The notes under the pieces are model-generated. The model searched no databases, had not been told where the DNA came from, and saw nothing but the letters and a program-made list of their open reading frames with translations. Below, in pieces: positions 10,694 to 31,328 of a stretch of DNA of 64,000 bases. The stretch's first letter is position 1. Each line of letters begins with the position of its first letter. The translations under genes were made by a program, and so were the position numbers. Origin of the DNA: Siphonodentalium dalli (lineage: Eukaryota > Mollusca > Scaphopoda > Gadilida > Siphonodentaliidae); assembly GCA_032622095.1 (NCBI GenBank), contig CP136067.1, positions 193,588,052-193,652,051 of the forward strand. The letters run 5' to 3'.

Positions 10694-10834
10694 TCAAGGC
10701 CACATGCCGAAAGGACTGTTCGATCGGATGAATGGCGAATTATTTATGATCTGCCTCACGCAGGCGCATATCTGCTGCCAATATTGTCGTCTGGGTCCCG
10801 AGAACGAGGCTGCTTGACCTTCTGGCACAGTTCC
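10694..10834 (-). CDS. BH3-only protein (Bim/Bmf type), terminal coding exon
   Basis: The exon follows a pyrimidine-rich acceptor, TTTATTTTCCAG, at 10846-10835 and encodes 46 residues before TGA at 10696-10694. It opens at a codon boundary (phase 0), matching the phase-0 donor of the BH3 exon at 16727. The peptide runs from a Gly-Thr-Val-Pro start to an R-R-Q-Y-W-Q-Q-I-C segment, then V-R-Q-I-I-N-N and a polar end. In vertebrate Bmf the region after BH3 likewise has Arg residues, then W-x-Q-I, then hydrophobics and Asn, and I read this as the homologous tail. It is less hydrophobic than the Bim membrane tail, so stable membrane anchoring is uncertain. The link to the BH3 exon is inferred from strand, phase and this similarity. 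An alternative is an unrelated chance frame. Confidence 0.7.
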   Translation of the reverse strand, partial: GTVPEGQAASFSGPRRQYWQQICACVRQIINNSPFIRSNSPFGMWP

Positions 10835-13800
10835 CTGGAAAATAAATGGGACCAATTTATCCAACAAAGGCCAGTAAAGCAATTTTGTGTTGTTTTTTTT
10901 TCGTCACGCCTCAGATATTACCTTGGTTAATATATAGCCACTTCACCTTACACTTGAATCACTTGGACATAAATGTATTAATACATAAAGATCCTAATAT
11001 TGGATACCCAAAAACGAAGACTCTTATTTCCGTTCTCTGACTGAGGCGCCACTTCGGTTGAAACAGAGATGGAAATATGTCCTATATAAAACTCGCAACA
11101 ATTATGAGTCACACAGGCTCGTATATTGGAATAAAACCTCATATTTGGGAAGAATGTGTAATGCACCCAGCACGCTTAATGTGACACCTAACCCTAAAGG
11201 GAAAAAAAATATTTTTCTCCGATTTCACGCCCATCCACATTTTCAGTGAAAAGAGTCGTTAAATGATAAAAAAATGTCACGCCCTATATATGACGCGCAT
11301 CTATTTTTGTGGTCCATCCTCTGGCCACGCATGTCCTATCAACCATTAATGTTTTATCATACAACTAATTATTTTTTATGACACCCGAGTTCAGTGCACT
11401 TGGTCACTGGCTGATAAAAAGTCAGACGGCAACATCGGACGCGCTGGATAATTGATAGGGAGGACCCGGAACCGGAACCAAGATTAGACACTCTCATGCG
11501 AACGGAGGCCAATTAACGACCCTATGTAAATATACCATTCTCTAATTTCATAATTACGTCGGGGTATAATTATGATTGTGTTATGCACGTGCAGCCACGA
11601 TATTCTTATGTCGTCTGCTTCGAAAAGAAACCAAAACAATAACAGACGCTTCCGTATAGAAATCTCATAAAACGGAACACAATAAGATAGCCCGCCCATT
11701 GGGAGCCTTTATTCTAGTGTTTACCTGGAAACTCAGATTTCGTTCCGTTTTATGTGTCTGGTATTTGTTTTATTTGGAATCAATTGCAAGGGGGCACTGG
11801 GTACACCGATCGAACAACAAACACCTGCGAGAGTCATCGATCATAAAATCACTGCTTTGATGTGAGCAAATAGTCGAAGAATCATTGAACATAGCAACTC
11901 CTTGATTATCCTTTACTTTTACGGTTGTAAGATCAGGCAGACCAAATCTCACACTGAGTAATAGCCTTATCCGTCCCTAAATTGTTCAGATCCTGTTGAA
12001 ATTTTGTCGAGTTTATCTAAACATGAATCCGGTGTAGATGGTGATCATAATCACCGGTGCTATGATATCAAAGAACCGAATTCGAATAACCAAGTACTGT
12101 ATGAAGTATTCGAATATATTTAATATATATTTTTATAGACGGTCCGGTTATTTAGCAATGAATGCGAATTAAAATTATAAAATAAATTGCTTTATATATA
12201 GGTTTAAACATATTTTAATAGAATATTCAGTTACATATACTAGGGGATTGGAGGACAAGTTCTTAAAACTTAGATGGATCTCCGCTCCCCACAATACAGA
12301 AAAGTATGACACCAAATATAAATGGTATATTTAAACAGAATAGGTTTGTCATGACGGGTGCATGTATACAATAACAATTGAATTTGAATAACTATACTAT
12401 TAAGTATTACTGGTGAGTGATAGTGTGGTGGTTGAGGGGGGGGGGGGGGTAAGTCTGGGTGCGAGTTAAATATATAAATCATGTGGTTCTTTAATGATCG
12501 ATGTTAATGGGGGTACATTTGTTAGGGGTGGCTAACTATATAGCCGACAGGGGAGTTGTACATGAACGTTATACTTAATGGTGGTTTATATATATATATC
12601 AACTCCAACTGAGTACCGACTCGGCTACATGGAATTAATTCCGTGTTAGCATCCAGGCCGTACACGAAATTTTAGATCATGACATGCGCTAACGAAATTT
12701 ATGTGATACAAAACCAGGTTGTACCCCTTTAATAGTTACATGTATATATGGTTCAATAAGAAAACATGTTCCATCACGTTTGTTTTGCTGTTTCTATCGT
12801 GAGAACGGTCAGAATTGTGGAAAATTTTCAAATTGATAAACTCCATGACACAAAAGGAAGATACAGTTATATAAATAGCCGTGATGCAGACTATATGCCT
12901 TTCGTCCTGGGTGTGACGGGACAAGTAAAAGAAATGTCCCCGGTTACCCCGGGCAAACTAATCCGACACAGCGGGGAGTACCCAGTGTGAGAATCTGTAC
13001 CACCGCGCAGACAAAAGGAGGAGACCTGTTAAGAGTCATCTCAATAAACAACTTTGGCGTTTTGAATAGAAATGCGATGCTGATGCCTTTTGTATAAGCG
13101 TAATTTCGCTTCCATTTATTCTGACTAATATGATTGTGTTCCCTAATTTTTATTGAAATTTCTGATGTTTGTCAATAACAGTCAAACGCGATCTAACATG
13201 CTAAGGTGCTGCGACATTTTGGGGAAAGGAATAAATAACAACAAACTTGTCTAAACGAGTCTGTTTATAGTCATTCACTCGGTGGATGCTGAACTTATTT
13301 GGAAGTGCATGATATTCGAGATATGTCATCACAATCATCACGCTGTTAGCCCGATTGGAATTTTCCGTAATCTTTTCTGAATGATACAGGGTACACCATT
13401 TCAGCGAGAAAAGTGCCTGTGACGCATGGGTTGGGTACAGACTTATTCGGTTTACTCACAGAAAATAATCGCACAATAAGTCTTCAAGTGAAACTTGTTG
13501 AAACACTATTGTAAAATATAACCTAGACTTATAAATACGAAAGAAAGTGATTTAGTTATTGAAGTCTTCGCAAAAATAATTATTGTTGTGCCTTTAAAAA
13601 AACTAGAAAATGACTAGATCGCAATCGGAAAATTCAATCGCAAAAAGAGAAAAGAAAAGAAAAACCTCACAGTCACAAATAAAAAGCCAAACGACGTGAG
13701 CGAATTACCTTGTAATTGTGACATAGTGTAATATCACAGATCTGCGGTTAGATTTATTGGGTGTTGATAGATGCTGAAGTTTGTTTCCAGGTGACGTAAT

Positions 13801-14274
13801 TCAGCCGGCTCGCGAGCACGTGAAGATCGCATCAGTGTCAATGTCGTAATCATCATAAAGAATCATAAAGCACGGCGTTTCATCGCAGTCCGACTCCCGG
13901 TCGTGGTTTTTATCGTGATCGGGGAAATTAGTCCCAGAATGCACTGCCTTGAACCTCTTTATTTCTCCATCAACTTTCAATGGCGCGCTGATTTACAGAC
14001 TCGATGCCACATGTCATATTTTGACAGCCCAGTTTTTTTTAACGAGTGGTAGATAAATTTTAATTATTCTTGGCGTATAATCGTCATCAACTGAGCGCGT
14101 GACGATGGCATGTTTAATATCGTGATTTGCACCAAACCGCAGACAGTTCCAGCCAAGTGAATTGCATGCTCTAAATAATGTTGTCATTCTTAATTTATAG
14201 TAAAATCTATGGAAGTGCGTGCGTTTGAGGCTGTATAGTATAGTTTCAGAATATTCATTTGGAGGAACGAACTT

Positions 14275-14700
14275 TTAAAGACATATTATGTACTTGTTCG
14301 GGTGCGTGAAACTGCTAAGTTTGTATTCAGGCACTATGCCATTTGGAGGAATGCAACATTGTACTAACACAACACGGCCGAAAATCTGAAGCAAATCGAC
14401 CGCACCACTCCATAGAAAAAACATCGTCCGAACTACGCTCAATTGTAAATATTTACTACTCGATTCGGGACGCATCTATTGGCAATCGATTCGGGACGCA
14501 TCTATTGGCAATAAACTAACGAAAACGATTTCACCATCGAGATTCACTGCGTTTAATTAATACATATGAATGACGGTGTTTGTTGTAAATTTAGATATAG
14601 TATTTGTAAAAATAACTACTTTGAATAAGATTATTCTCCATTTCTATTTGATCACCCTATATATATACTGGAGTGTTTCACACCACTTTAACTCAATATC
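14275..14700. repeat. Dispersed 350-bp repeat, copy 1
   Basis: Shared with 22025-22400 and 61785-62050. Landmarks in order are TGTTCGGGTGCGTGAAACTG, GGAGGAATGCA, CTCCATAGAAAA, CTCAATTGTAAATATTTAC, TCGATTCGGGACGCATCTAT and CTATTTGATCACCCTA. No terminal repeats are evident and the class is unknown to me. This copy has an extra 26-bp duplication at 14460-14512. Confidence 0.75.
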
Positions 14701-15373
14701 AGAGTAGGAAAAAAAACTAAAAAAAAACTCGACACAACACGGCATAAACCGAGAAAAAAAATAATTGACGATAATTTGGTATCAATGTTCAATACTGCAT
14801 GTTGAACTATATATGTATAGGGAACTCAGAAACACGTTCTAAATTAATGACAGTTATAAGCAATGATACTTCCGAATAAACTCATTTAAAGTGAGTGAAC
14901 CCTATGATGTGAACAGTCAGTAATTTTAGAATTTATTCAGTTCAAATAGAAAATCCAGAAATTACGCAGCCGTAAACTGCAGAACAGAGAAACAAGTGTA
15001 TATATGAACAACAGAAGTTCGAACGGATGCAAATATAATTCCTTTGAACCCGTCTAGATATGTCTTTTTTTCTGCACGTCAAATGACTGCACTCGGAAGC
15101 CCCCACTTCGGCTGGGAAGCATGCACTTGGCAGATTCTTCAAACGCAATTTCATAACATGAAGTGATAACCATTAGAGTGAACCTATATATACTTCAACA
15201 ACTATGCATAAGTAATTATCTATAACGTTAAAACTATGCCTCATAGAACTGTTGTGAAGTGTATTAACAGTTTTGTGAATATTGTCCCCACCTATGCATG
15301 CTGCACTCGTACATGTACTCGTTATATGCAACTTATCATCTGTCATGTTCAGCTTTATGCATCACCTGCAACG

Positions 15374-15664
15374 TTAAAGGGGGACTGTACACTAAATCCG
15401 GTCATTTATGGGACCATCTCCTTTTATATACACTCAAAAGAAATAAATGCAACAAATGAATAATAATGAAAAAATTTATTTATGACTCCAGCCATTTATT
15501 CATTTTCATTATAATTACCATATTGTTTGTGTCGCTCATAGAGCACATGAGTGTATTTTGCACTAATCCATGGATCAAATTCATTCACTTGTTGCATTTA
15601 TTCTATGAGTATAAAATGAGATGGTCCCACAAATGGCCGGATTTAGTATACAGTGCCCCTTTAA
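15374..15664. mobile_element. TTAA-flanked AAAGGGG foldback, complete
   Basis: TTAA at 15374-15377 and 15661-15664 flanks AAAGGGGGACTGTACAC at the left and GTATACAGTGCCCCTTT at the right. The inner arms CCGGTCATTTATGGGACC and GGTCCCACAAATGGCCGG pair. It is a 291-bp non-autonomous foldback element and gives the intact structure for the broken copy at 5475. Confidence 0.85.
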
Positions 15665-16726
15665 GATTTCACTCCCACAAGTGGTCAAAATATCGTATAC
15701 CGACTGTTGGGTATAGATTGAGCGATTTTTATCCCAGTATAATTTAATACTTTTATAACTTTGTAAATGACATCACCAATGTGACTGTAATCCCATAATA
15801 CACCGCAAACATCACAGTCACGTGATTACGATCTACCAAAAGCTTTTCTGTGTTAAATAATAATTTCGTCCCAGAACGAAATCCTGTTAAACCAAATTTA
15901 TAGTCGACGAATGCCTTCCGGTCATAATTAAATGGGTGTAAAAATCAGGACTCGGACATGGACAACTACAAGGGGTCGCGCAGTTTTGTGTGCGTGTCAC
16001 GTGAGGTTAATTGTCGTGGTAACAGGATTGTGGCGTGTAAAGAAATCTCTGTGGGCAAATGACAAGGCTCCCAAATAAAATGTGATAAGGACACGTTCCT
16101 GTAGGCATTGGCGGTTTATCGGTGAAATAAACCGTGGTCATAACATGTTCCTGGTGAACAACGATCGAAACCTTTTAGAAGCTGCTAATCCAAGGCGATA
16201 AAATATGATTTAATGGATGTCAGCATGACATATACCAGTTCCATCCGCATCAGCTTGATTTAGAATAAGGGTGCGGTGGCACATAATAGGCCAACATAAA
16301 CGTTGTGATATGCATAGCGGCGACAACGAAGATACACTCAAAGATTTACAATTAATTATTGACCATATAAGGGCAATCAAGAGTTAACTAGTGACGAGCA
16401 AGCATGTGGGACGAGAATAATGAAACGTACACATGTAAGCAAGCTATAAAATAGAAACGTAACTCTCAGAAAGATATCGAAGATATCTGCTTGCTGCTAG
16501 ATCCTTTTCCCTTTTTCTATTCTGTTCATGTTTCCATCATCAAACTGCTGTTCATCATAAATGTAATATTAATTGGGGCAAATAAATATTGTTTAAATCA
16601 TCTCTCAGAAACAACAGTCACGAAGTTTCAACCGAAAATTTCAATCTCGCCTTCTGTCCCTTATACGCCATGCCCAATTCCACATAGAACGTCTTTAGAA
16701 CTGATTATAGCGATAAATTTACTCAC

Positions 16727-16950
16727 CAGGTGTCGCCCTCTATAAGAGTCTACGAATTCGTCGCTTATTCTCCTCAGTTCTCGTCCGAACTCGATTTCGC
16801 TGGCACGCCTGCGCGATGGCATGTCCGGTAACGACGAAGATCGGTCACGTGATATCGGGATGATATCCGGAAGTGGACCGTGGTGTTCGTCTGCTTCCTC
16901 CCCGCCACATTCGGAGCGATGCCGATGGCGGACTCGTCTGTGAGCTGAAC
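16727..16950 (-). CDS. BH3-only protein (Bim/Bmf type), BH3 exon
   Basis: The acceptor TTTGTGTTTCAG (16962-16951) and donor CTG-GTGAGT (after 16727) define a 224-nt exon. It begins with the last two bases of a split Gly codon, fitting the single base left by the upstream exon, and encodes 74 further residues. Near its end lies E-I-E-F-G-R-E-L-R-R-I-S-D-E-F-V-D-S-Y. This matches the BH3 helix of Bim at the key positions: Ile, Leu (codon 16777-16775), Ile, the small residue (Ser where Bim has Gly), the invariant Asp, and Phe. The helix binds the groove of pro-survival Bcl-2 proteins and, in the family, triggers mitochondrial apoptosis. Upstream the exon is Arg- and Ser-rich, with R-R-R-A-S directly before BH3, a basophilic-kinase-like site. 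Ending an exon just after BH3 also fits Bim gene structure. The motif is highly specific and a chance match is very unlikely. Confidence 0.88.
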
Positions 16951-17289
16951 CTGAAACACAAATAAAAATGGCGAGGTAAAGCAAACGTCATGCAGCGATG
17001 AAAAAGTAAAAAAAAGTAATTCTGCACACAAAAACCTGCAAGACACAAGGTGGGGTTGAACCTTTTGTTTCTCCAATTAAGAGTTTTAACTAATTATTAT
17101 ATTACAACTTAATCAACTTAAGTGTTGATAACCTTGAAGGATTTGCAGGTTACGAGTCATGCATGCATACATGGGCTTGCGAGCTTGATAGTTTTTTGTT
17201 CTTCTGTATTAGTATATGTTTTGTTTGTTATTTTTTAGCAGTCCCTGCATGGCCTATAAAGTATATATTTTTAGCAGATTTTATTTATA

Positions 17290-17345
17290 CCATCACTGCA
17301 AGAGGGCCACCGTTGGCTCAGTCGGTTAGGCGAATCGCATATTGA
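17290..17345 (+). repeat. tRNA-like SINE head fragment
   Basis: GTTGGCTCAGTCGGTTAG resembles the D-arm and A-box of a tRNA and is preceded by GAGGGCCACC. There is no matching anticodon arm or B-box downstream, so it is not a tRNA gene. A similar head, GGCCCCGGTGGCTCAGTTGAT, occurs at 26317. Read as 5' remnants of a tRNA-derived SINE. Confidence 0.45.
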
Positions 17346-17529
17346 GCCAGCATAGGTCGCATCGGCACCTTTAAGCATCTCCATGTATACATGCATGCAG
17401 ATATAGCACGGAGCGAATTAAACATTGTAGAGAATAGTATAGGTTATATAAAACCACTTGTAAGTCGACACGTCGCCGCTTAAATGTAAGTCTGTGCCTC
17501 GCCGCCCATGCAAGAGTGAGGAGTAATAG

Positions 17530-17544
17530 CCCCCCCCCCCCCCC
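17530..17544. repeat. C homopolymer tract
   Basis: Fifteen consecutive C. Comparable C or G tracts are at 12436-12449 (G), 40485-40498, 45529-45557 (29 C) and about 55468-55484. Such tracts are assembly-fragile. Confidence 0.8.
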
Positions 17545-18574
17545 ACTATAAGAGGGTTATGATTTGACACACATGCACGGATTCGCACATCTTGTGTTTA
17601 CTGTGTATACTACAATACTAAATCACGATTTTACCGTGTTCCATCTTGTCAACTATAGCATCGACGAAAAGACGAAATTTTTAATGACGTGCGAAATAGC
17701 GAATTGTATGTTTTATTATATTCTTTGGGGCAGCATTTGTAATAATACTGCTTCATTTCTGATTTCCACAAAGACGCTCAAGATGTCAAGAAAATTACAA
17801 GAAGACATTGAAGAAATACAAAGGTCACAACTCAGATCGACTGTCAGTATTTTGTGTTTGGCACCTGCCAAGGGAGGTAATTGTGACTCCATTCATGCGG
17901 GATATAAACGACAAGTCAGACTGATGTTATACACAAATCTGCATATGTTGTGCAACATTTAAACCAATACACGTGTCGATTTTACCGCTATCTGTTCGTT
18001 GCTATTGTATTGACATATATCGGTTTTCTGCATTCATAGTTGTGATTCACTCATAATCTCAATAAGTCAGATGCAACAATTGGAGAATTTAAGATCTCAA
18101 TCAGTGTCTCAATTCACAATGTTTTTGTTCAGAACAAAATATACAATTTAACAATGTACGACACAAGTTTGCTTTCAAATGTGGGCGCGTGCTCAAATGA
18201 ATATCCCTTCGGCAAATATACGCATGATCTTTCTTATGATTTGTATGCATATGAAATAAAGAAATCGCAAATGGGCGTTTTGTCTTCCGTTGTTCATCTG
18301 AATGAATCTTAGCATTGCTGTGCAGCGTTGATGCGTCAACACGTGTGAAATTAACTGATCTAACAGGTAGAAACACAAATAGGCATGACAATAGATCGTG
18401 AAGACAGGTGGGGGAAGAGTATCTTTTGTCCAAGAGTTTTGTGAAAGATAATGGTGAAGAAACCAGTGAAGAAACTATAATATAATGTCCGCATGAATAA
18501 TTATGCCGACCATCATCATGTGTAGTGGTCAGACAAATGCTTAGATCATGTAATGAATCTCTATTCTGGCTGTG

Positions 18575-18665
18575 CATGCCGATATAGAGATCTTATACTC
18601 CACCAGTTCAAAACCTGGGAACTTATTTATGTTCTGACAAGGAAGTTTATAAATCTGAAGAAAAA
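18575..18665. repeat. GCCCGTAGAG foldback family, end fragment
   Basis: TAGAGATCTTATACTCCACCA followed by GTTCAAAACC-GGGAAC matches the left end of the element at 41045-41130. Only this end is present. Confidence 0.6.
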
Positions 18666-18700
18666 AAACCAGTGCAGATATTGTTTCTTAATAATGTATT

Positions 18701-18960
18701 TCACAGTATAGGTAAAGGTTCCATCACATGGTAAGAACGCCATTGCAGCTGTTTGGTGGTATTAAAAGTAAGACCAATGGTAACGGCTACTGACTCACAG
18801 ACGTCGAGAAGACGGCGAAGACCCTTCACAGACGGTGCTGCCAGACACATATCATCAGCGTAACAAAAATTATTCAAAGTACAGTTACGAATCACGCATC
18901 CAGCATTCACCTCATTCAGCAGTTCACTCATACCATATATGTACAAATTAAAAAGATGCC
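18701..18960 (-). pseudogene. Non-LTR retrotransposon reverse transcriptase, C-terminal part (broken)
   Basis: On the minus strand the frame continues a reverse transcriptase after the MITE: H-L-F-N-L-Y-I-Y-G-M-S-E-L-L, then N-F-C-Y-A-D-D-M-C-L, the catalytic Y-A-D-D box of the palm, then L-A-A-P-S-V-K-G-L-R-R-L-L-D-V-C. Homology fades near 18760. The reading frame does not join the upstream part even if the MITE and one TTAA are disregarded: the 13 bases between the conserved Leu-Ser codons and the Leu-Phe-Asn codons are not a multiple of three. The element is therefore dead independently of the insertion. It lies in the long intron in the same direction as the host gene. Confidence 0.85.
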
Positions 18961-19313
18961 TTAACCCTTTACCCAACAAACCGGCCAAAACCGGCCAAAT
19001 AAAGCTTCAACAGCCTAAAATATCTTCGGTCTGTCTCAATAGAACCATACAAATATGGATATCATTGGAACCGGCTCCTTGACCACATTGTGATAGTTAC
19101 AGTTATGCCCTGTGCCAATGCATTCTATTATATATGCGAGTCGACCATTGGCCTAACACTTTTTACCATTTTTTCTTACATTCTTTAACAATTTTATAAT
19201 TTTTAATGTGTTAAGCCAATGCATTCTCTTATATATGTGAGGCGACCTATGGTCGACTCGCATATATAAGAGAATGCATTGGCACAGGGCCCTTCTGTTG
19301 GGTAAAGGGTTAA
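18961..19313 (+). mobile_element. piggyBac-type MITE with paired hairpins, copy 4, inside LINE
   Basis: TTAACCCTTTACCCAACA at 18961 and TGTTGGGTAAAGGGTTAA ending at 19313 give a clean TTAA duplication inside the reverse transcriptase frame. The first hairpin is truncated: its left arm is followed directly by TCGACCATTGGCC, so about 50 bases of the loop and right arm are deleted. The second hairpin (about 19216-19283) is intact. Confidence 0.92.
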
Positions 19314-20490
19314 AATGGCTTAGGACACTACCTTGTCTAACACCAGCATCAGGACAGAAGCAGTTTGATAACTCAGATCCCCATATGACTCTGAATTGCT
19401 GGTTTCGGTACCAGTTAATTAAGAGCCTTACAATTATCGGAGGCACCTCGCCTTCTAACAGTTTTTGGAAAAAGACATCATGTTGGATTCGGTCGAACGC
19501 CTTGCTGGCGTCGCGGAAACAAGCAGTGGTGTTTTTGGACACATAGTACCTCACAGCTTTATTCAGAGCAAAAACACACGTGTCAGTAGAGTGCTTAAAT
19601 CCGAATTGATTGGCATTGGTACGAAGATTGTCCTCACATTTACTCAGAATTAAAGTCTCCAAAATTTTCGAAATAACAGAGGATAATGCAATAGGTCTAT
19701 AATGGTCTTTATCGTTAACATTTCCGGATTTGTTTTTAAAAATTGGGACAAGAATAACTTCCAACATCTTAGGTGGCAGATGACTATGAGTCAGGGAAAA
19801 GTTGAAAAGTCGACACAACCATTTAGGTAAAGATTTTCCACAGTATTTGAAGTGCTCCGATGTAACACCATCGCGTCCAGCAGATTTACCAGTCCCTAAA
19901 TTTGTTGTGACATTGCACATATCATCATCAGAAAAAGTCATGACTCCGCCCTCGGACGAAGATATTGCAGGAGAAGACAACATTTCAGAACCCTGACACA
20001 GAAGGTGTTTGAAGTGATCGAACCACAAGTCCGTTACTTCACGGCCGCCTGTTACGCCACCAACAGTCGCAGCGCATCCTGATTTGCATCCTGAAGATAA
20101 CTTCCTCCAGAAACTAGTAAACTTCTTATCATTGGAATCAGAAGCTATTTGCAATCAGCTTTGTATCTCCCCGCATCACGTTTACATTTCCGATAAGCAT
20201 ACTTAAACTGGGACCGGGAACGACACATCGATTCATATATATACCCATAGCTAGGTCGACCTTGATTTATCCATACACCGAAAAAGTGACGTGCGTAATT
20301 ATAGAGTTTTTTAACAGAAGACTTCCAATCCGGAAAATTGGAGTAGCTGTTCTTATTCGACCTTTTGAATTTGAGACGATGCTGCGATTACAGCGTCTAC
20401 AAGCGCTGCCACAATGTTGAGTATGTCAATCAGGTCCTTATGTTCCCCAAGTGAGCAGCATGGGTCATCAACCGAAAAGGCTTCCAACCC
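19314..20490 (-). pseudogene. Non-LTR retrotransposon reverse transcriptase, N-terminal part (broken)
   Basis: The minus-strand frame from about 20154 to 19314 encodes the fingers and first palm of a LINE reverse transcriptase. Seen in order are a G-R-D-G-V-T-S-E-H-F stretch, L-P-P-K-M-L-E-V-I-L-V-P-I-F-K-N-K, D-H-Y-R-P-I-A-L-S-S-V-I-S-K-I-L-E, D-A-S-K-A-F-D-R-I (the first catalytic Asp) and G-V-R-Q-G-S-V-L-S. Further upstream, across at least one stop near 20155, a linker-like segment (K-L-Y-N-Y-A-R-H-F-F-G-V-W-I, then F-K-Y-A-Y-R-K-C-K-R-D) extends to about 20490. No endonuclease domain is present, so the copy is 5'-truncated. The clade (RTE-, CR1- or Jockey-like) cannot be decided by eye. 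Confidence 0.88.
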
Positions 20491-20687
20491 GAAGGTATAT
20501 GTGTTAACAAGAATATGCCATACTCTATACCAATTTGAGAATATTTAGCGAACAAAATTTCCGACATATACAGCTGACATATATCTATTATTATTTCAAG
20601 ACATTATAACCAATACTTTTGGACAAGACGACATCTGAATATATGTTCTCACGAATCGTGCAATCAACTCGAGAGAGAGCGTTAACT

Positions 20688-20735
20688 CCACACGTGGTTA
20701 CAATACACGTCATGGTTAAAAATAACCACACGTGG
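20688..20735. promoter_or_regulatory. Inverted pair of CACGTG E-boxes
   Basis: CCACACGTGGTTA (20688-20700) and TAACCACACGTGG (20723-20735) are perfect inverted copies separated by 22 bases. Each holds a CACGTG core. It could be a bHLH-zipper site pair or just a small hairpin. No function is shown. Confidence 0.4.
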
Positions 20736-21516
20736 CGGTGCGCATTAAACGAGAGCGCGTGAAATCCTGCTGCGCCAGAACCGATGTACGCTAATGTTAT
20801 GAAATCCGATCATTGACACACATCGGGTAGTCGGTCACTGGGCGGGTATATTTGGTAAGCAAAGTCGGTCACAACTGCCTTATATTGGTTATATTAAGTG
20901 ATAAATATGGAGCATGGCATTGCTGACGCAATTACCATATTTATATTTCCCGCCATGGGCGCGGCACGTGGATGTGTGATGTTATCGTTTAATCTTGTTA
21001 TCTTATGTAAATCGAGGTGACATCTCGGTAAATATATGATAAACAATATGTCCAAAATCACGACCCCGTCACCGATAGGTTTCGATATAGAGTTGAATCG
21101 AAAATAGATTTATATAAAAGATACGAATTCGAATATATATACCTATATATGTTGCGCATTTATAAGCTATAGGTCGATACACAATTAAGAAATGATGCAA
21201 CGGAATAGCCCGAATATGTAAAATGTCGGGTTTTAGGTTAAACTGCGTTAACTGTGCATGACATTCATTCAGTGACCGACATGATTTGATGAAACCACCG
21301 CTCAGTAATCTTACAGGCACGAGTTCCTATCTGTTTTGATAGATTCCTTGTATGAGCATGAACTATATATTACATTAAATCTCATGATGACGAGATATTC
21401 TCCAATATCATGGGTAAGATTTGTTATCGCACCCCCTCCCCAAGCACATGAAACGTATTTTCAAAGTGTGGAGAAATTCTATGTACACCCTTGAGGACTC
21501 CAACTTAAATTTCTTT

Positions 21517-21916
21517 TTAACCCTTTACCCAACAGAATGGCCCTGTGCCAATGCATTCTCTTATATATGCGAGTCGACCATAGGTCGCCTCGCATATATA
21601 AGAGAATGCATTGGCTTAACACATTAAAAATTATAAAATTGTTAAAGAATGTAAGAAAAAATGGTAAAAAGTGTTAAAAAAAGATTTTTTTTAGGCCAAT
21701 GCATTCTCTTATATATGCGAGGCGACCTATGGTCATCTCGCATATATAAGAGAATGCATTGACACAGGGCATAACTGTAACCATCACAATGTGGTCATTG
21801 AGCCGGTTCCAATGATACCCATATTTGTATGGTTCTATTGAGACAGACCGAAGATATTTTAGGCTGTTGAAGCTTTATTTTGCCGGTTTTGGCCGGTTTG
21901 TTGGGTAAAGGGTTAA
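21517..21916 (-). mobile_element. piggyBac-type MITE with paired hairpins, copy 5
   Basis: TTAA at 21517-21520 and 21913-21916, ends CCCTTTACCCAACA and TGTTGGGTAAAGGG, both hairpins present. The second hairpin has a loop change (GGTCATC in place of GGTCGAC). At 400 bp it is close to the consensus length. Confidence 0.92.
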
Positions 21917-22024
21917 CAAAACAAAAACAAAGACAGTAAAAAACCAGTCCCATATAAGCTGTGATCGGTAATTGTCGGGTCTTTGAAATTCAATCAAATG
22001 CAGAAATACATTCAACTGTTAAAG

Positions 22025-22400
22025 ACGTATATATATGTACTTATTCGGGTGCGTAAAACTGATAAGTTAGTACTCAGATGCTATAGGCCAACTGGAGGAA
22101 TGTAGCATTCTAGTAACATCTCCGAAAATCTCAAGCAAATCGACCTACCACTCCATAGAAAACATCGTCTGAACTATACGCTCAATTGTAAATATTTACT
22201 AATCGATTCGGGACGCATCTATCGGCAATAAACTAACGAAAATGATTTCGTCATCGACAGTCACTGCATTTAATTAATATTTAAGAATGACGATGTGTAT
22301 TGGCAATTTAGATATAATATATGTAAAAATAACAACTTTGAACAAGATTATCCTCCATTTCTATTTGATCACCCTACCGGAGTGTTTCACATCACTTTAA
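22025..22400. repeat. Dispersed 350-bp repeat, copy 2
   Basis: Co-linear with 14275-14700: TTCGGGTGCGTAAAACTG, CTCCATAGAAAACATCGTC, TCGATTCGGGACGCATCTAT, CTATTTGATCACCCTACCGG. It carries no extra 26-bp duplication. Confidence 0.75.
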
Positions 22401-22616
22401 AACCAAATACAGGTTGCAAAACATATTGAAGACTCACAATGAAAGGTACCAATTGGAAAATTCTGACTGGGGTGTTGGTGTCGAGGGGGTTGTAACATAA
22501 GCTCAACTTGGTATAGTCCGAGGGATGAAACTGAAACTAGACACCCCTCTCCCGAATGAGGAGGCTCTGTTATCCCTACAAATGAATTTCATTAGAAGTT
22601 GTACCATTGCTTTGGT

Positions 22617-23077
22617 CTAAAGGTACTCAATCCGAACAGACGTTCCTAAATTACTATTTCTTTGGCTTTAAGGGTAAAAAATATTTGATTCGAGTCGAGG
22701 AACCCACCCATCAAATCTCAGAGTGATCATATATCGAAGTTTGTTATTTCTCGAGATGTGTAATAATTTGTGGCCCAGAAACACGTGGTCAAATAGATGG
22801 TCTCGGACAAAATTGCGGATGAAGATGGATAACTCTAAAATTAAGTGATAATACGGTCAAATTTCGTGATACTTTAGTGATAAATCCGGCCATATTTTGT
22901 TGAACAAAATGTTGATAAATAACAAGTTTTGGGAAATTTGATACCATAGTTGACAGTGGTTAGCATTATTTTGTTGCAATAAATCGATTTTGATAAATAA
23001 AGCGTATTTTGAAGAAATTTTGTTGTTGTTGTATCTTGATGGTATGGGGACCGTCTGATCGGTTTGAGTACCTTTAA
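22617..23077 (+). mobile_element. TTAA-flanked AAAGGTACTC foldback, copy 2
   Basis: Same structure and orientation as 7258-7730. The left flank reads CTAA instead of TTAA; the right TTAA (23074-23077) is intact. The central part repeats GAGGAACCCACCCATCAAA and TTGATACCATAGTTGACAG. Confidence 0.85.
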
Positions 23078-24971
23078 ACGTTATGATTGACATGCTCTGT
23101 CGTGGCTCTTCTGCAAACAACAGACTTGATAGATCAAACAGGTGGTACATATGTGTATTCGTGTGTCATCCACTCTGCACGCTATAGAGGGCCATCTAAA
23201 ATTACATATAGCACACTTAAATTTCATTGTTCCGTTTCTGGCAGAAATTGAAAATCCAACTTTTTGTTGTACAGCCGCAAACACCCGCGGCGACTCGCGA
23301 GATCAATTTCTATAAACATCGTAGTAAGAGCTCGTAGAGAAGCTATTCACCCGAAACGGGGTCAAGAGGATCCACTAAATATTACCAAAATAGAGACGGA
23401 CTCTTTTCATAAGCACAAACAAAAAACAGCTAATCGAAATACAATATTTACACGTTAGTTTGGCAAAATGCCATGAGATCCGTGGAAACTGGGTCAAAAA
23501 TACTACGCTGTTACTGAGTGTTACTACGATGTTTTGATCTGAGCAGAGGTCCATCGCTGACAGGCAATAGATAATTCTCTTGACCAATTTACCGCATTGT
23601 TTTGACTCGCGCCCGCGTAGTATGTTGCGGAACCTTGCATCCATCAACATATTATGGGGATTAAATCACAACAGCAATTGCCTTTAGTATGAACTAAATT
23701 TGGCCTGCATAGTGGCTTTCGTTTGATGATGTTGGAAAGACTTTTTACTTCTGTTATTATGATAATTGCTCCTAAAACGAGATACTCTTGTTTATTTGAC
23801 TTCAACGAGCATCAGACGAGAGGCCGATCACGGTCGGCAGATGTTTAACTCATCCCTTGGCGTTAGTAAATTTCTATGATCTATATCAAACATTTATAGT
23901 TCTGTATATGCCCTGAAATCACTCCATTATTTCCAAATTCCAGAAAATACGGCTTCACAAAGTGTTCATAAAATGCAATGAAAGTACTAGTTTGGTGGGA
24001 TAAAGTAATGGTGCGACCGTGTGCTTCGCGGTTCTCTGGCTATAGATTCCGTGGCGTATAAGAAGGGCTCGAGTCGAATGTAATTCTTTCGCTCATGTGA
24101 ATTATAGAAAACATAAATATACACAGGCTGGTTTAAAAAAATTCAGATGGCCTACATTCAATAGTTGAGCCACGTTACGTAGTCGGATGTTTTTTCTCGA
24201 AACCACTCAAAATATTTCTCCAAATCGAGTGTTAAACGAGCTAACAATAGCAGCCATTTTAATCGAAAAATACGTACTGATCTCATAAAAATTTAAGAGA
24301 GGCAATTCTCATAAGAGCGAAATGAAAAACTTGAACCCAGTTTATACAGTTTAAAAATATTGGATGAGTTATACAATTCTAACATATAAACTATTCAATA
24401 TCTTTTGTCTAACAGCTCTCGATAAAATAATTTTCACAGAATTTGAAAACCCCTTTTCAATTTTACGAGACGAGTGAAATTGTCGTCGGCTTGATAATCG
24501 ACTATGTTTTTCATCGTTCAATAAGTGATACAGAATTCACAGACCATCGAGCAGAGAAACTTGATATTGTAACTAGTCGCTGCATTAGCTATTGTATATC
24601 TGCACAGTGGACCATTGTTGAACGTGCATCTTATACCGAAGACTCGATTGGGGGGTCATTCCTTACGAATTTATAGAAAATCCACTTGATGCCAATTTCC
24701 TATTATTAGTCAATGTTTGTACAAACAATAATCGGTTTCGAGCATGCAACTTGTGTTTCACCACCTGTGATCTTCTCGAAATGTACAAGACAAATACAGT
24801 GACTTGGGCGATATTTAACCCATTCTATACTGATGGATTCTTCGATTCAGTTATAAAACTATACATTGGAACGGTTTATTATTAATTTGGAGGGGTGTTC
24901 GTGTGATAAAAGCAGACGACAGACAGAACAATAGATAATACAAGAGCATAATATTCATATTCATTGGTGGC
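23078..24971. other. Intronic DNA, nothing recognised
   Basis: No repeat family or exon recognised. Several 60-90-residue frames occur on both strands without domain-like features. Confidence 0.45.
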
Positions 24972-25047
24972 AAATGTTCAGATAATAAGTTCAACAAACG
25001 ACCATTATGTCTATAGGTCATTTGTTGAACTTATTATCTGAACATTT
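24972..25047. repeat. Perfect 27-bp-arm hairpin
   Basis: AAATGTTCAGATAATAAG and onward (24972-24998) is exactly repeated in reverse complement at 25021-25047, around a 22-nt loop that itself contains ACC and GGT. It occurs once in the window and is unrelated to the MITE hairpins. Confidence 0.8.
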
Positions 25048-26180
25048 CCTAAGGGAACTAAACTCGCCAGTGAGTACTTAGTACGGAAATGGTTGAATGG
25101 GGCGGGCTGTCAACCATCGACATTGCACGTTAACTTCCCCCTCCGTTTCTGCCTCTGAATATTTCATTGTCGCTATCTTGGGGTTGACCGTTGAACGTTA
25201 TAGCTAATTATGTTACGACCCATGGTTACTAATAAGTATATAAGACATATATTGGACGATGGGATTGGAGGACATGTGAACTCTACACTTCTCAGTTCTC
25301 ACTTCTGGGATGTAATATTTAAACTGCTGCCAATTTCTATCTTGCATGTGATAGTATGTTAAGCGGGAAGTAGGAAATTGACCCATGCAGTTTGATCCAG
25401 AAATACGTTTATTGAAAATATCATAAAGATCTTGACTCGGAGAATACAATTTCCAACCTTGTGTTTCAGCAATGAAATTTATATAACTCGGAAATTTGGG
25501 AAAAGTTAGGGACTCGGATACGACAGTTCATAACCGCATAAATTAGGACGTCCTTGATCCGATGTGATCAACAAATAATTGGAGCAAGCAGGCATGTACC
25601 AGAAGCAACGTTCAATTAGCTTTATTTATCAAATATGCCCCAATGAAGAAATAAACCACAATTGGACATAGTATATTACGATTAGACTTCAAACATTCTT
25701 CTTAGAGATAGAAAATGGGTGTGGCATGCTGCATGGCAACACACCGCAGACACAACAACCCCACCCCATCCCAACATGAATGAGGATTCAGCAGGTGTGT
25801 TCTCTGCATATAAATAAATAGTGCATGTTTTCTATTGACATGAAGACATGCGTAGAAGATACACATCTGGGTCTACAGTAGGGCATATAGGTGCACAGCG
25901 TTTGGAACCACAACATTCCACAGCCACGTGGCGATAACTGACTCACCTTCCATAAAATTGCGGGCTTAATGATTCCAATAAAATTTACGCGAAGACAAAG
26001 ACTAATATTCATAGATGAGTCGACCCTGTTTAGGGTCTCTTTGAACTTGTTGCTTTCAGGAATGCCTCAGCTTCTATTGGGAGTGCTACCAACCATCCCA
26101 AACATGTGAAACTCGTGATCGCTCAAGTTCAACAACAAACACTTGACATTATTAATCATTATATATATTACATTGTACTT
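25048..26180. other. Intronic DNA, nothing recognised
   Basis: No gene or repeat recognised. Confidence 0.4.
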
Positions 26181-26277
26181 AAATGCCGTGCCATGTAAAC
26201 AGCGCGGTCATTTTTTATTTATATATTTTATATATAGTACATTCATGCCGTGCCATTTAAACAGCGCGGTCATTTGT
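26181..26277 (+). repeat. 65-bp direct duplication
   Basis: ATGCCGTGCCATGTAAACAG-CGCGGTCATTT occurs at 26181 and, with one change, again at 26246, with T-rich sequence between. Confidence 0.8.
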
Positions 26278-26314
26278 TTTTTTTATTTATTTTGGCGTTT
26301 TGGTCAGCAACTCG

Positions 26315-26340
26315 AAGGGCCCCGGTGGCTCAGTTGATAT
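26315..26340 (+). repeat. tRNA-like SINE head fragment
   Basis: GGGCCCCGGTGGCTCAGTTG resembles a tRNA-derived SINE start and stops abruptly before an AT-rich run. Compare 17296-17325. Confidence 0.4.
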
Positions 26341-27669
26341 GAAAAACAATTTGTTTTTAATTAAAATGTTGTTTTAAAATAAAAATAAAAAAATAAAAAT
26401 ATGTTTAATAGTTCAAAACGTGCGCGAAGTTCTATTAAAGTCTCCCGTGCGCATTTCCGACCAAACACGCTCCTGTGGCTTCTATTGCCTGCAGTGGATA
26501 TTTCTTCGATCAAATATAAGACATCCCCAGTTTGTGGACATAATTCCTCGTGTTATACAATGACTCACTACTGACACACTTAATGCGACGTGGGTGCATG
26601 CGAACTGCAATGCATCGTACTCTCCCGGTCATAAAACTGACCCGCTAACCTCGGTGCGCATCATAAACGCGCATGCACGCGCAGAACAGACGACTTGACG
26701 CCTTTGTTTGCCGCAGAATCAGCTGTAATTTCGCACCTTGGGGAATTCCTTGTTGTGTCTATTATCAATTAACAACAGCTAAATATCTACAAAAACTTTC
26801 TGTTTATTTTATATCTCGGCGGGAGATAAATTTGGAACTACTTATCTCCGTCGATGAGCAATACGATTTCACGATGAGGTCATCACAATATAGATCAAAA
26901 GCCATTGCCTGCATGTGCTCGTGGAGTATAACAAATAGAATTCCCACCTCTTATGTAATGACCCAGCATGCTTGGTTATAAAAATGTTAATTTGATCAGC
27001 AATGTTCGATCACCACATGCAAGTCCATGGTGAAACAGCCGAGATTGCAACTTTGGTCAAAATGTTCAATAGTTGGAAAGTTGATATTATTCTGGTAGTT
27101 TGATATTCCAATCAATATTTGAGGGATGTTTCGGGGGTGGGGCATCTGGAAACAATTTGCACGATGTACCCTTGCAGACTATCGCGGCAGTCTTATCGAA
27201 TATCGAATCAGTATAGACGGGGATATAATATCTGCATGGAGTTTGCACTGCCACTATAGGTATACACCGAATTTAAGGAAATCTTATATATTTTTTATTT
27301 AAGACCTTTGGAAATTTACCAGATCAAATGAGAATTAATTGTAACCGACGTAAGTTTTAAATAATAAATAATAGAGTTAATTGCATTATGTACGCGACGG
27401 CAGTATAGTCAGACGAACATACTGAGGGGACTGAACTGTACCTTGCAGTTTATCCACATCCTTGCATGTATATAGGCATATAGGCCTATATATAGGACAT
27501 AACATATACATGATGCATGAGGCGGAGCTTGATATATTCGGACAATCGGAGGTTAGAGATGAGCAGCATTTAATTTTATTGTACAAACAACATATGGCGA
27601 AATTATTCAAGATGAGATAATGGAGCACAATTATATGGGTTTGAGCTGGTTTGTGTAATAATAATTATT

Positions 27670-27735
27670 GGCGGGGATACGAGAGCACGCGCGGAGGCGC
27701 GCGCGAGTTCCCGCCGTCACATCGCGTGCGATCGC
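27670..27735. promoter_or_regulatory. CpG-dense island with E2F-like sites
   Basis: Within AT-rich intron DNA a 66-bp block holds roughly 17 CpG. It includes GGCGGGGA at 27670 and TTCCCGCC at 27708, inverted relative to each other and each close to the E2F core. It might be an internal promoter or enhancer of the BH3-only gene. There is no transcript evidence. Confidence 0.35.
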
Positions 27736-28899
27736 CACATATAATCGACGCTTGTTGTATCTTCTGTCACCAATTGATTTTTTTCTCCTCTCTCGTCATT
27801 TAGACGAAGGAAATGAGATTTAATTCGGTCACCGACATGTGCATGTATCATTCAGCGCTAACATAATTGGGTGAGCAAATTAGAGCAACTTAGGCCCAAC
27901 CAATTTATGAATTTATACACCATGGATTTCCTGTGGCTTATACAGTGCATGTTCAAAACGAAATTGGGGAATATGTACAGGGTCTTAACATCTTAAATAT
28001 TAACATCCACGACCAATTTCATGATGATCAGACGAACAGTTTGGCCTGTAGCCCGTGCTAATGAATTGATTTTTTAAATCCAAGATCTAAAAGGTCCAAG
28101 CTAAAAAGGAATATTAAAATAACATAGTGCCCTGACGGATTTGCTGATTGCTGGTAATTGCTGATGTGGTATATGCCTGCATGCCGATGATCATTTATGT
28201 TCTAATGCGTTTATATGTTGATTTACGGCTTTTATGAATATACAATAAAATGCATGTATAGTATACAAGTTTCCTTCGATGTAAACCACCTAATGAAATT
28301 GGTAGGGAAAATTCTGGTTTGCGTTGAAGTACAGATGTCTAATTATTCTATATATAGCGGATTTACGCCCAGATCCAGTGGCGGGATTTGTCGTCATCAT
28401 CATGTAGAAAGAGGGATATCTTACGGTCTTAATTATGCATTATATAATCTAACTGTTGTGTTAAATTATACGCACAGAATATTCATGTAATTATAAGTGT
28501 TACCTCACACTTGATAAATTTGTTGACGTCTATATATAGAGAAGAACAAAATTATTACGAAGTTCGCGAGGTCAAATTAGTTGTGTTTTTCTTTTAAAAT
28601 TGTGTAAGCATTGTGATAATGTATATATTTTCACTTATAGATTACAATATATTCAGTTGAAAACTCTTGTGCATGGAGTTCATGACAAATATGATGTTTT
28701 CTATATTGAATAAACCCGTTTACTTTCACAATTATGAAATTTTATTACCGTCATATATAGGCGAGGTTATAGATGAGCGGACGATTTACGCTTAAAGTCC
28801 GCTATATAAAAGAGAAAAGCAACAGTACTTTGGCGTAAACCCAGTATATTCCCTATACCAATTTCACTATAGCAGGTTTACGTTGACAGAAACGTGGAA
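27736..28899. other. Intronic DNA, nothing recognised
   Basis: No gene or known repeat family. GGCGTAAACC- and GGATTTACGCC-type short sequences recur near 28365, 28785 and 28830. Confidence 0.4.
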
Positions 28900-29075
28900 T
28901 TTAACCCTGCCATGACTGGGGCATCCTGACATTTTACGAAAATATAGTGCCAATGCATTCTCTTATATATGCGAGTCTCCCATATGCAGCCTCGTATATA
29001 TAAGAGAATACATTGGCCTAACAATATTTACATTGACATTGTAAGCCAGTGCATTCTTTTATATGCAGGAAAAAT
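28900..29075. mobile_element. Degenerate hairpin-module element
   Basis: Starts TTAACCCTGCCATGACTGGGG and carries the CCAATGCATTCTC hairpin (about 28948-29017, loop changed to TCTCCCATATGCAGC). A residual second arm, GCCAGTGCATTCTTTTATATG, lies at about 29044-29065. The right outer end is lost. The outer end differs from the main MITE family. Confidence 0.6.
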
Positions 29076-29422
29076 AAATAAGAACGCATAATCCATCAAA
29101 ATATTAAACAATCCGTTTATGTTGTGAACGCCTTATATACACATACATGTCCAATAAATGCATATACCGTATAACGTCATGTCGTGTTACTTGCGTTGAA
29201 CATTATGGGAGACCGTTTTCACATTCATAAATTATTTGAATTCAGTGTAATTCTTTATGCTTAAGCGGAATTATATTATTAAATTACACCTATATATATC
29301 AGGAAACAGTTGCATGCGCATATATTAGGCGCAATTGTTTGATCCCAATTCAATTTAAATTCTTATAATAAAGTCCAATTAATATACGAAAAATGCATCA
29401 CTTAGAAAGCTGCATGCGATTT

Positions 29423-29514
29423 ATCCGCCGTTATGAATATGACCGCATGATTTGTTTGGTTTCGATATATCCGCCGTTATGAATATGACCGCATGATTTG
29501 TTTGGTTTCGCCTA
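29423..29514 (+). repeat. 46-bp tandem duplication
   Basis: ATCCGCCGTTATGAATATGA followed by CCGCATGATTTGTTTGGTTTC is repeated head to tail at 29423 and 29469, with near identity. Confidence 0.85.
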
Positions 29515-30389
29515 ATGTGGACAGCCTCTGAATGAGGCACATCAATACAATTAAGTTTTACAAATCTTAAATCGCATCGATCGTGTGGAATTTAACAGTT
29601 CACCGATTGTCGATCTGTCACAAGTGTGATTGTTCTAAGTCATGCGACATTATCTCACAGACAGATGCATTTTCTGTCTCGATGATATTGCGTTTGTATC
29701 TGTTTTGACACCAGATCAAAAATATGTACCATACGTTTCAGAGACACGATAACGCTTCCTAGAAATTGACGACAGAAACTGTTATATGATACTCGTTCTT
29801 AAAGATGTAATCGGGGTTTGTGGCCATTGTCAATTTTTACAAAACCTGCATTGTATATATTTTTCATTACATTACATTGTATAAAATAACATCATTTGAA
29901 CCCTGAAAGTGTCACATCGAAGACATGTGCTGTCTTTATATTGGTCGCCGCCGAACAAAGTAATCTTCTAAAACAGTATATAACATACGATTTTTTTTAT
30001 CTGATGAACATTAATTTTAATCTTTTCGATTTTAAATTTATTAAACTAATTGATTTATAAATTAATATTAATCCAACAGCACCAAACAATTTGTATAAAT
30101 ATAAATATATACATTTTAGTGTGAACATGTGAGCGAGATAGAAAGTTAGAGAGCGAGTGAGTGCATGACCACCCCCTCCAATCATTCCGTAGTACCATAT
30201 ACAATGTTTCTTTGTTATATAATACTATATGTACAGGGCAAAAATTATATTGAATAATATCCCCCTATTGGTCAAAAACCATGTTATTTTGTACACTATA
30301 CAATCGAATTTCGGGGGAAAAAAACCCAGTTTCAGTAAAAATTGGCCATGAACCCTGAATACATCTTTGAAATATAAAGTTGCACTCAC

Positions 30390-31328
30390 CTCTGGCGAAC
30401 ACGGACACGCGGTACATATCTGGACGGAGCGTCAGCAGTTGTTCCATAATCCGACATACTGGACTCGGCGTTTGAGTCGCTATTGTTCGGCCAAAAGGCG
30501 ACCGGAACCTGTACCCGCCCAAACGATCCTGCGATGTACTACTGCACAGAGAGTTATGTTCCACCGTTTTTGAAATTGTCCCGACTTCCTCGTCGTCCGA
30601 ATCCTCCTCACTATCACTGATAGGGCACACCATCCTGTTTAGAATAGACAAATCGAGTCCAGCCCGCGAAGAAGGCCGCGAAGGAGGATCAAATCCACGG
30701 CACGAACTTGGACGCGGACACGACCTCGGGTGAGGACAAGACATCGGACGAGGGCGCGAGCCCGGACGGCTGTGGCAAGACAAGGGTCTGTTCTGGAATG
30801 AACCCGGGCGGCTGGAGTAGCCTGAACGATTGTCATGTTCTGGCGCATGTTCAAAGGCATGGAAAACTTCATCGTCATCACTTTCATCTTCTTCGACATC
30901 TTCTGGAATGTCGATTGGGCGAAACCCAATAGATGGTTCACGTCCTCCGACGGCACCAAGAAGTTCGTCTCCAAACAGGTAACTACTTCCCGGAGTAGAC
31001 AACTGTGCTGGTGAATCATCAAACGGGAAACGACTTCCGGGAATAGGTACCTGAGCCGGTGAACCATCAGTGACGTAACCACTGTCACGTTTGGCCGATA
31101 CCGGAGTTATTGTTCGTTGCTTGAAGTCTTTTGGCGACAACGCCAAGTTTGCCGGTAGGAGTCGTGGCGAATCATTTACGAACGGTCGAGTTACACCACT
31201 TGGTAACAGCCGAGGTGGATCAAAGTTACGCGTAGCGCCCAGTAGTGGGAGCTCAAGTGCGTCGTCGCTGTCACTGTCTTCATCTATTCCTAGTTTAAAC
31301 ATATCATCAGTTTCGATCAAGGTTACCA
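30390..31328 (-). CDS. BH3-only protein (Bim/Bmf type), large disordered exon with LC8 motif
   Basis: A 939-nt exon between acceptor GTGTCTTTTCAG (ending 31329) and donor AGAG-GTGAGT (after 30390). It starts two bases into a codon and ends one base into a Gly codon that the BH3 exon completes. The 312 full codons give a low-complexity, probably disordered chain. It opens with I-E-T-D-D-M-F, reminiscent of the acidic D-D-V-F start of Bmf. There follow many Ser/Thr-Pro sites, an R-D-S-G-Y-V-T-D segment, acidic runs (residues about 140-155 and 240-255) and a Pro/Arg/Ser-rich block. Near the end (30486-30457) is T-I-A-T-Q-T-P-S-P-V-C-R, the LC8 dynein light chain motif that Bim and Bmf use for cytoskeletal tethering. 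The start codon is probably in an unseen upstream exon; an internal Met lies at codon 9 of the exon. Confidence 0.85.

What the first reader, a model, noticed from the sequence alone, without database searches (positions are those of the whole stretch)
10694..31328. A Bim/Bmf-type BH3-only gene assembled from three phase-matched exons
Three minus-strand exons fit together. The large exon ends one base into a codon and the BH3 exon starts with the other two. The BH3 exon ends on a codon boundary and the terminal exon begins on one. All splice signals are canonical. The LC8 motif, BH3 helix and Bmf-like tail occur in the order known for vertebrate Bim and Bmf. Family knowledge: BH3-only proteins bind pro-survival Bcl-2 proteins. 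The gene would span at least 20.6 kb for about 434 known residues.
Basis: partly seen in the sequence, partly recalled or inferred. Interest (0 to 1): 0.88.

Follow-up and report, generated by a model that had tools for sequence, protein, structure and literature searches.

The report
BAD-like cell-death gene with Bim motif
This invertebrate genome holds a three-exon gene for a cell-death trigger protein whose killing helix and nearby control sites look like vertebrate BAD, but which also carries the cytoskeleton-docking motif of vertebrate Bim, so controls that vertebrates keep in separate genes may sit in one protein here.

Summary
The three minus-strand exons exist as described: A 31328-30390, B 16950-16727, C 10834-10694. 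Phases (1, then 0) and splice signals fit, and they encode 433 codons plus a stop. Exon B is clearly a BH3 exon. In the 2.2-Gb genome, the Pfam models for BAD and for the Bim-type BH3 each matched only here.

The family label needs changing. The best match is BAD, not Bim or Bmf (Pfam BAD E about 2e-6, at its cut-off; no Bmf-model match found). The BH3 helix is 13/17 identical to BAD's and 9/17 to Bim's. An RxRxxS/RSxSxP serine and an RRxS serine inside the BH3 sit where BAD has Ser136 and Ser155. Upstream lies a Bim-like LC8 motif, TQTPSP. The 'Bmf-like tail' of exon C is no better than shuffled sequence.

Bcl-2/Bcl-xL-like, LC8 and 14-3-3 genes are present. The host is unidentified, probably a non-arthropod protostome. 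Papers seen report no BIM or BAD in molluscs. Best reading: a BAD-type BH3-only protein that also has a Bim/Bmf-type LC8 anchor. No transcript or binding data were available.

The parts
30390..31328 (-). Exon A: N-terminal region and LC8 motif; 939 nt; probable ATG at 31302 (codon 9 of the open frame)
   Evidence: strong acceptor TTTTCAG, donor GTGAGT, 368-aa open frame, raised GC
30460..30477 (-). TQTPSP: LC8 (dynein light chain) motif as in Bim (DKSTQT, PMC4695108); T286-P287 is also a proline-directed kinase site
   Evidence: Bim motif and JNK Thr112 from passages of PMC4695108
16727..16950 (-). Exon B: BH3 exon, 224 nt, phase 1 in and phase 0 out
16913..16915 (-). S325 in RHRHRS-ECGGEEADE; aligns with the BAD Ser112 region (lacks the +2 proline of a 14-3-3 site)
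   Evidence: human BAD recalled
16826..16849 (-). RDRSSSLP: S352 fits RxRxxS (Akt type) and RSxSxP (14-3-3 mode 1), as BAD Ser136 does (BAD sequence and motif names recalled)
   Evidence: 2.1% of shuffles of exon B's N part have RSxSxP
16742..16795 (-). BH3 helix IEFGRELRRISDEFVDSY; S375 (RRIS) at the place of BAD Ser155
10694..10834 (-). Exon C: terminal coding exon, 46 codons and TGA; AATAAA at 10294 and 10269 downstream
   Evidence: no detectable similarity to recalled BAD, BIM or BMF
10736..10789 (-). Possible amphipathic C-terminal helix RQYWQQICACVRQIINNS
   Evidence: low-confidence model

Best explanation
A single-copy gene for a BH3-only protein of BAD type that also carries a Bim/Bmf-type LC8 docking motif. 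Proposed working: in healthy cells the protein is held away from mitochondria in two ways, by LC8 bound at TQTPSP and by 14-3-3 bound to phospho-S352; phosphorylation of S375 inside the BH3 helix would also stop the helix entering the groove. Stress-kinase phosphorylation at T286-P and loss of survival-kinase (Akt/PKA-type) phosphorylation would free it. The BH3 helix then inserts into the groove of the genome's Bcl-2/Bcl-xL-like protein and so releases Bax/Bak-type effectors. Shown by calls: the exons, phases, motifs, the similarity of exon B to BAD, and the presence of Bcl-2-like, LC8 and 14-3-3 genes. Inferred: splicing, start codon, disorder, binding, phosphorylation and the two-lock logic.
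For: Pfam BAD E 2.2e-6 for exons B+C (28.6 bits, cut-off 28.2) and Bclx_interact E 5.2e-4. Searched over the 2.2-Gb genome up to E 10, each model has one match, both in exon B (1 of 6 candidates scored; 1 of 2). BAD BH3 chain 1g5j_B is the best PDB match; BH3 helix identity is 13/17 to BAD and 9/17 to Bim. Exon B vs recalled human BAD scores 104, with 0 of 300 shuffles reaching it; of 1,291 open segments of 30 aa or more in the window it scores 106 and the next 39. S352 meets both RxRxxS and RSxSxP, S375 is RRxS. TQT.SP appears in 0.02% of shuffles of the whole protein. BH3 helix predicted with pLDDT about 90 from the single sequence. Partners: Bcl-2/Bcl-xL-like with BH4 (L001, PDB E 4.9e-41), a second Bcl-2-family protein (L002, best PDB hit 'Bcl-2-like 4'), LC8 with 11 matches, 14-3-3 with 10 matches. 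The protein search found no second copy (3 matches, the three exons).
Against: The BAD score sits at the curated cut-off: the whole 433-aa protein gives 27.9 bits, below 28.2, and genome-wide 27.7 bits, counted as over only with its frame neighbours. The BAD model also rang, below cut-off, in one bacterial control. The Bim-type match is below its cut-off. By composition alone RSxSxP arises in 2.1% of shuffles of exon B's N part and 8% of shuffles of the whole protein, TQT in 1.4%, the BH3 octamer in 1.4%. The LC8 motif has Ile where Bim has Lys before TQT (DKSTQT), although PMC5746249 does not find a strong preference for Lys there. Outside the BH3 helix the alignment of exon B to BAD is modest (5 of 300 shuffles reach it), exon A is not like BAD (252 of 300), and exon C is like none of the three. 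No transcript and no relative was available.
Confidence: 0.72

Rival explanations
1. A Bim/Bmf orthologue: the LC8 motif and exon order show its descent, and the BAD-like BH3 residues are convergent or ancestral.
For: TQTPSPxC closely matches recalled Bim; exon A vs recalled BIM is reached by 8 of 300 shuffles. Exon order LC8 / BH3 / tail is as in Bim, whose E2 carries DKSTQT and E4 the BH3 (PMC4695108 passages). Recalled, not tested: the human BIM BH3 exon is 104 nt with the same phases 1 and 0.
Against: Bim's BH3 has G where this has S; BAD beats Bim in Pfam, PDB and pairwise scores. The Bmf model found nothing. No Bim-like or Bmf-like tail.
Confidence: 0.15
2. A BH3-only gene private to this lineage, whose short motifs resemble BAD and Bim only because they bind the same conserved partners.
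For: All strong similarity is in short linear motifs; exons A and C do not align to BAD above shuffles. PMC8998228 suggests that schistosome and nematode BH3-only genes are not closely related to each other.
Against: The exon B to BAD alignment runs over about 60 residues up to the BH3 with the phosphosites in the same order, and the BH3 helix is 13/17 identical.
Confidence: 0.1
3. Exons A, B and C are not one gene: A or C belongs to another transcript.
For: Introns of 13.4 and 5.9 kb; phase fit alone (a chance of about one in nine) and order link them; exon C has no homology.
Against: All three are on one strand, carry strong splice signals and raised GC, and no other open segment of 100-400 nt between strong sites lies on that strand of the window.
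Confidence: 0.12

Closest known systems
BAD (Pfam PF10514 Bcl-2_BAD)
   Same: BH3 helix (13/17), order of RxRxxS-type sites, RSxSxP before the BH3, Ser inside the BH3 (RRxS)
   Different: Has an LC8 motif, and a much longer N-terminal exon (425-433 aa in all against 168 in human BAD, recalled); tail not alike
BIM / BCL2L11 (Pfam PF08945 Bclx_interact)
   Same: TQT LC8 motif in the exon that is spliced to a separate BH3 exon; LRRI-DEF core; separate terminal exon
   Different: Ser instead of Gly in the BH3 core; no Bim-like hydrophobic tail; BAD-like 14-3-3 motif
BMF (Pfam PF15185)
   Same: ATQT..SP-type motif upstream of a BH3 (Bmf sequence recalled)
   Different: Pfam BMF had no match in the genome; BH3 and tail are not Bmf-like
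Schistosome, nematode (EGL-1) and cnidarian BH3-only proteins
   Same: Invertebrate BH3-only proteins in genomes with Bcl-2 proteins (PMC8998228)
   Different: LC8 or 14-3-3 motifs are not mentioned for them in the passages and section read; not aligned here

Membership tests
BH3-only proteins | One BH3 motif (L-x3-small-D-[ED]-hydrophobic) on an amphipathic helix and no other BH domain | tested here: met
   no Bcl-2 or BH4 match up to E 10; highest helical moment among windows without internal proline
BH3-only proteins | Binds the groove of pro-survival Bcl-2 proteins | not testable with these tools
   A Bcl-2/Bcl-xL-like protein with NWGR and BH4 exists in the genome; binding was not tested
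BAD | Match to Pfam PF10514 at its cut-off | tested here: inconclusive
   28.6 bits (B+C) over 28.2; whole protein 27.9, under it; only match found in the genome
BAD | 14-3-3/Akt-type serine before the BH3 (Ser136) and Ser inside the BH3 (Ser155) | tested here: met
   Motifs present; phosphorylation and 14-3-3 binding not testable; role in BAD from the abstract and passages of PMC1368972
BAD | BAD-like C-terminal tail | tested here: not met
   224 of 300 shuffles of exon C score as well. The gene is therefore called BAD-type, not filed as a BAD orthologue
BIM | LC8 motif TQT upstream of the BH3, in the exon before it | tested here: met
   Bim layout from passages of PMC4695108
BIM | Match to PF08945 at its cut-off | tested here: not met
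   20.3 to 21.8 bits against 25, although it is the only match found in the genome
BIM | Hydrophobic membrane-binding C-terminus | tested here: not met
   286 of 300 shuffles score as well as exon C
BMF | Match to PF15185, Bmf-like BH3 and tail | tested here: not met
   no match at E <= 0.001, 2 candidates scored; the tool warns that nothing rang in its controls either; no match up to E 10
BAD / BIM / BMF | Orthology by gene tree or synteny | not tested
   No relatives of this animal are held; the motifs are too short for a tree

The most novel reading that the evidence does not exclude
The gene keeps the state of a bilaterian ancestor from which vertebrate BAD, BIM and BMF were split: one protein with both the cytoskeletal LC8 lock and the survival-kinase/14-3-3 lock on one BH3 helix, later divided between separate vertebrate genes.
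Probability: 0.3. Interest if true: 0.78.

Novelty: new variant of a known kind. Interest (0 to 1): 0.6.

Why it matters
Papers seen here (passages) state that BH3-only proteins including BIM and BAD had yet to be identified in molluscs (PMC8917759, which also lists BMF as absent from oyster annotations; PMC5550854), that BMF and its LC8 motif were not found beyond vertebrates (PMC5746249), and that such proteins are only 'potentially present' in Lophotrochozoa (PMC8998228). If the host is a non-arthropod protostome, as the marker searches suggest, a BH3-only gene with both a BAD-type helix and a Bim-type LC8 motif would supply a missing arm of the intrinsic death pathway there. It would also make the origin of BAD, BIM and BMF testable, because any relative can be checked for the same three exons.

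Tried and rejected
Host identification. The paper search for 2.23 Gb and nine chromosomes gave the scorpion Hadrurus arizonensis (abstract and passages read). Rejected: no arthropod hemocyanin C domain at E <= 0.001 (no candidates) and no arthropod cuticle domain at E <= 1e-6 (2 candidates scored). For both the tool warns that nothing rang in its controls, so absence is not proved. Molluscan hemocyanin beta-sandwich: none at E <= 0.001 (same warning). PF08187 (asked for from memory as a molluscan neuropeptide family; the tool calls it Tetradecapep): none. A bantam-like microRNA at 50.2 bits, under the gathering score of 61, with TGAGATCA in place, points to a protostome; that bantam is protostome-only is recalled. 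Further paper searches for the species led nowhere.

Bmf-like tail: rejected as evidence.

Similarity of the start 'MFKLGIDEDSD' to recalled human BAD 'MFQIPEFEPSE': seen by eye, not supported by alignment (exon A vs BAD: 252 of 300 shuffles score as well). The segments are cut one residue late at the exon edges (exon B there lacks its first residue and has the first of exon C).

Rfam on the window: nothing at gathering scores. tRNA: none.

Structure of exons B+C together: low confidence (mean pLDDT 56), so only the exon-B model was used for the BH3 helix. No fold search was run.
Full report
Observation. The window is a 64-kb piece of a 2.2-Gb, 9-contig animal assembly. The three minus-strand exons of the finding are there, with the stated coordinates, phases and splice signals: A 31328-30390, B 16950-16727, C 10834-10694; introns 13,439 and 5,892 nt; 433 codons and TGA. 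Exon A's open frame of 368 aa exceeds the longest frame in any of 200 random Markov-1 sequences of the same size (221). GC by codon position is 45-65% against 37.7% for the window. A splice-site control on the minus strand found 33 strong acceptors (of 2,952 AG) and 22 GTRAGT donors. Exactly one segment of 100-400 nt between such sites is open in any frame, and it is exon B. When the protein is searched in the genome up to E 10, the three exons themselves are the only matches (3 of 3 candidates).

Exon B is a real BH3 exon. The Pfam models for BAD (PF10514) and for the Bim-type BH3 (PF08945) each give one match in the genome up to E 10, and both matches are exon B (2 candidates scored, 6 scored; E 0.0039 and 0.55 at genome scale). 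The tool scores only its best candidates, so weaker matches could be missed. In hmmscan the two-exon protein scores E 2.2e-6 for BAD (28.6 bits, cut-off 28.2) and 5.2e-4 for PF08945 (20.3 bits, cut-off 25); the whole protein scores 3.6e-6 (27.9 bits, just under) and 3.8e-4. In the PDB the best match is BAD BH3 (1g5j_B, 21.4 bits, E 0.0024), ahead of Bim (1pq1_B, 14.3 bits, E 0.38); of the seven listed matches five are BAD or Bim and two are unrelated proteins at E 0.39 and 1. Identity over 17 BH3 residues is 13 to BAD and 9 to Bim. The BH3 helix has the largest helical hydrophobic moment of the proline-free windows of the protein, and AlphaFold2 without an alignment gives exon B one helix (residues 48-72 of 75) with pLDDT about 90 in its middle two blocks.

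What kind of BH3-only protein. Without the BH3 helix the BAD score is 48 (5 of 300 shuffles reach it). Among 1,291 open segments of at least 30 aa in the window, exon B's frame scores 106 against BAD and the next 39. S352 lies in RDRSSSLP, which satisfies RxRxxS and RSxSxP together, as recalled BAD Ser136 does; RSxSxP arises in 2.1% of shuffles of exon B's N part and 8% of the whole protein. S375 lies in RRIS inside the BH3, the place of BAD Ser155. S325 in RHRHRS aligns with the Ser112 region but lacks the +2 proline. PMC1368972 (abstract and passages read) describes Ser136 as apparently the major 14-3-3 site and cites Ser155 for Bcl-XL binding.

The Bim-like side. TQTPSP at 30477-30460 is the only TQTPSP in the six frames of the window (one other TQTP lies at 54684, plus strand). 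TQT.SP occurs in 0.02% of shuffles of the protein, TQT alone in 1.4%. Bim's motif is DKSTQT, in exon E2, which is spliced to the BH3 exon E4, and JNK phosphorylation of its Thr112 frees Bim from microtubules (PMC4695108, passages read). The equivalent T286-P is present here; the Lys before TQT is not. Exon order (LC8, BH3, tail) is as in Bim. That the human BIM BH3 exon has the same phases (1 and 0) is recalled, not tested. The Bmf model found no match in the genome, and exon C aligns to BAD, BIM and BMF no better than shuffles (224, 286 and 200 of 300).

Partners. The genome has a Bcl-2/Bcl-xL-like protein with BH4 and NWGR (L001; PDB E 4.9e-41, Pfam BH4 27.2 bits), and a second Bcl-2-family protein (L002; best PDB hit 6wgz 'Bcl-2-like 4', E 4e-14, with Bcl-2 and Bcl-xL chains below it). 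That 6wgz is a Bak homologue is recalled, so 'Bak-like' for L002 is tentative. There are 11 LC8 matches, one of them partial with a stop, and 10 14-3-3 matches, some of them pieces of one gene. The proposed mechanism thus rests on partners that are present: LC8 and 14-3-3 hold the protein, kinases set and release the locks, and the BH3 helix neutralises the Bcl-2-like guard. Binding and phosphorylation are inferred; the kinases were not searched for.

Host. Not named. No arthropod cuticle or hemocyanin domain was found (the controls rang nowhere, so this is not proof), and a bantam-like microRNA is present. Together they suggest a non-arthropod protostome. No molluscan hemocyanin domain was found. 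The scorpion whose published size and chromosome number fit (PMC11126328) was rejected on the marker searches.

Literature. PMC8917759 (passages) says BH3-only proteins including BIM and BAD had yet to be identified in molluscs, and lists BMF among proteins absent from oyster annotations. PMC5550854 (passages) reports none in oyster or in Mollusca, PMC3634015 (passages) none in bivalves. A squid paper names Bnip3 as BH3-only and notes that Bid is absent (PMC9389742, passages). PMC5746249 (passages) found the BMF protein and motif not conserved beyond vertebrates. [quoted passage not shown] PMC8998228 (passages and section 2.4) finds probable BH3-only proteins in deuterostomes, 'potentially' in Lophotrochozoa, and notes that two echinoderm candidates are long (373 and 350 residues) with the BH3 on one exon, as here. 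In the listings (titles and starts of abstracts), and in the passages opened, I saw no description of a BH3-only protein with both an LC8 and a 14-3-3 motif; the library is open-access only.

Verdict. A real BH3-only gene (about 0.93, my estimate), BAD-type in its BH3 exon with a Bim-type LC8 motif (0.72 as stated), probably in a lineage where such genes are reported missing. The claim that it preserves the common ancestor of BAD, BIM and BMF is open (0.3).

Noticed in passing
G000, 128 PF00452 matches; L003, L004, L005 hold examples: Most of the 128 Bcl-2 matches look like one dispersed family: open frames often of 199-205 aa, many with exactly 54.5 bits; one typed frame gives Pfam Bcl-2 E 2.8e-14. 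34 neighbouring pairs lie head to head within 3 kb and none tail to tail. In L003, by eye, two such frames flank a GC-rich inverted centre beside another open frame, as if carried in inverted repeats of a mobile or viral element. About a hundred copies of a Bcl-2-like gene in one animal genome is unusual.
   Followed up: partly
window 19153-20154, minus: Open frame of 333 aa with a reverse transcriptase domain (PF00078, E 3.4e-12): a retroelement fragment inside the 13.4-kb intron.
   Followed up: partly
G000 C4:187786402-187981972 and C7:140075307-140101554: LC8 dynein light chain matches are clustered: eight within 200 kb on C4 and two within 27 kb on C7.
   Followed up: no
window 18864-19188, 21479-21989, 46650-46985: Recurring related open-frame fragments (such as '...LPNKPAKTG...' and '...YGYHWNRL...') on both strands, probably one dispersed repeat.
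   Followed up: no
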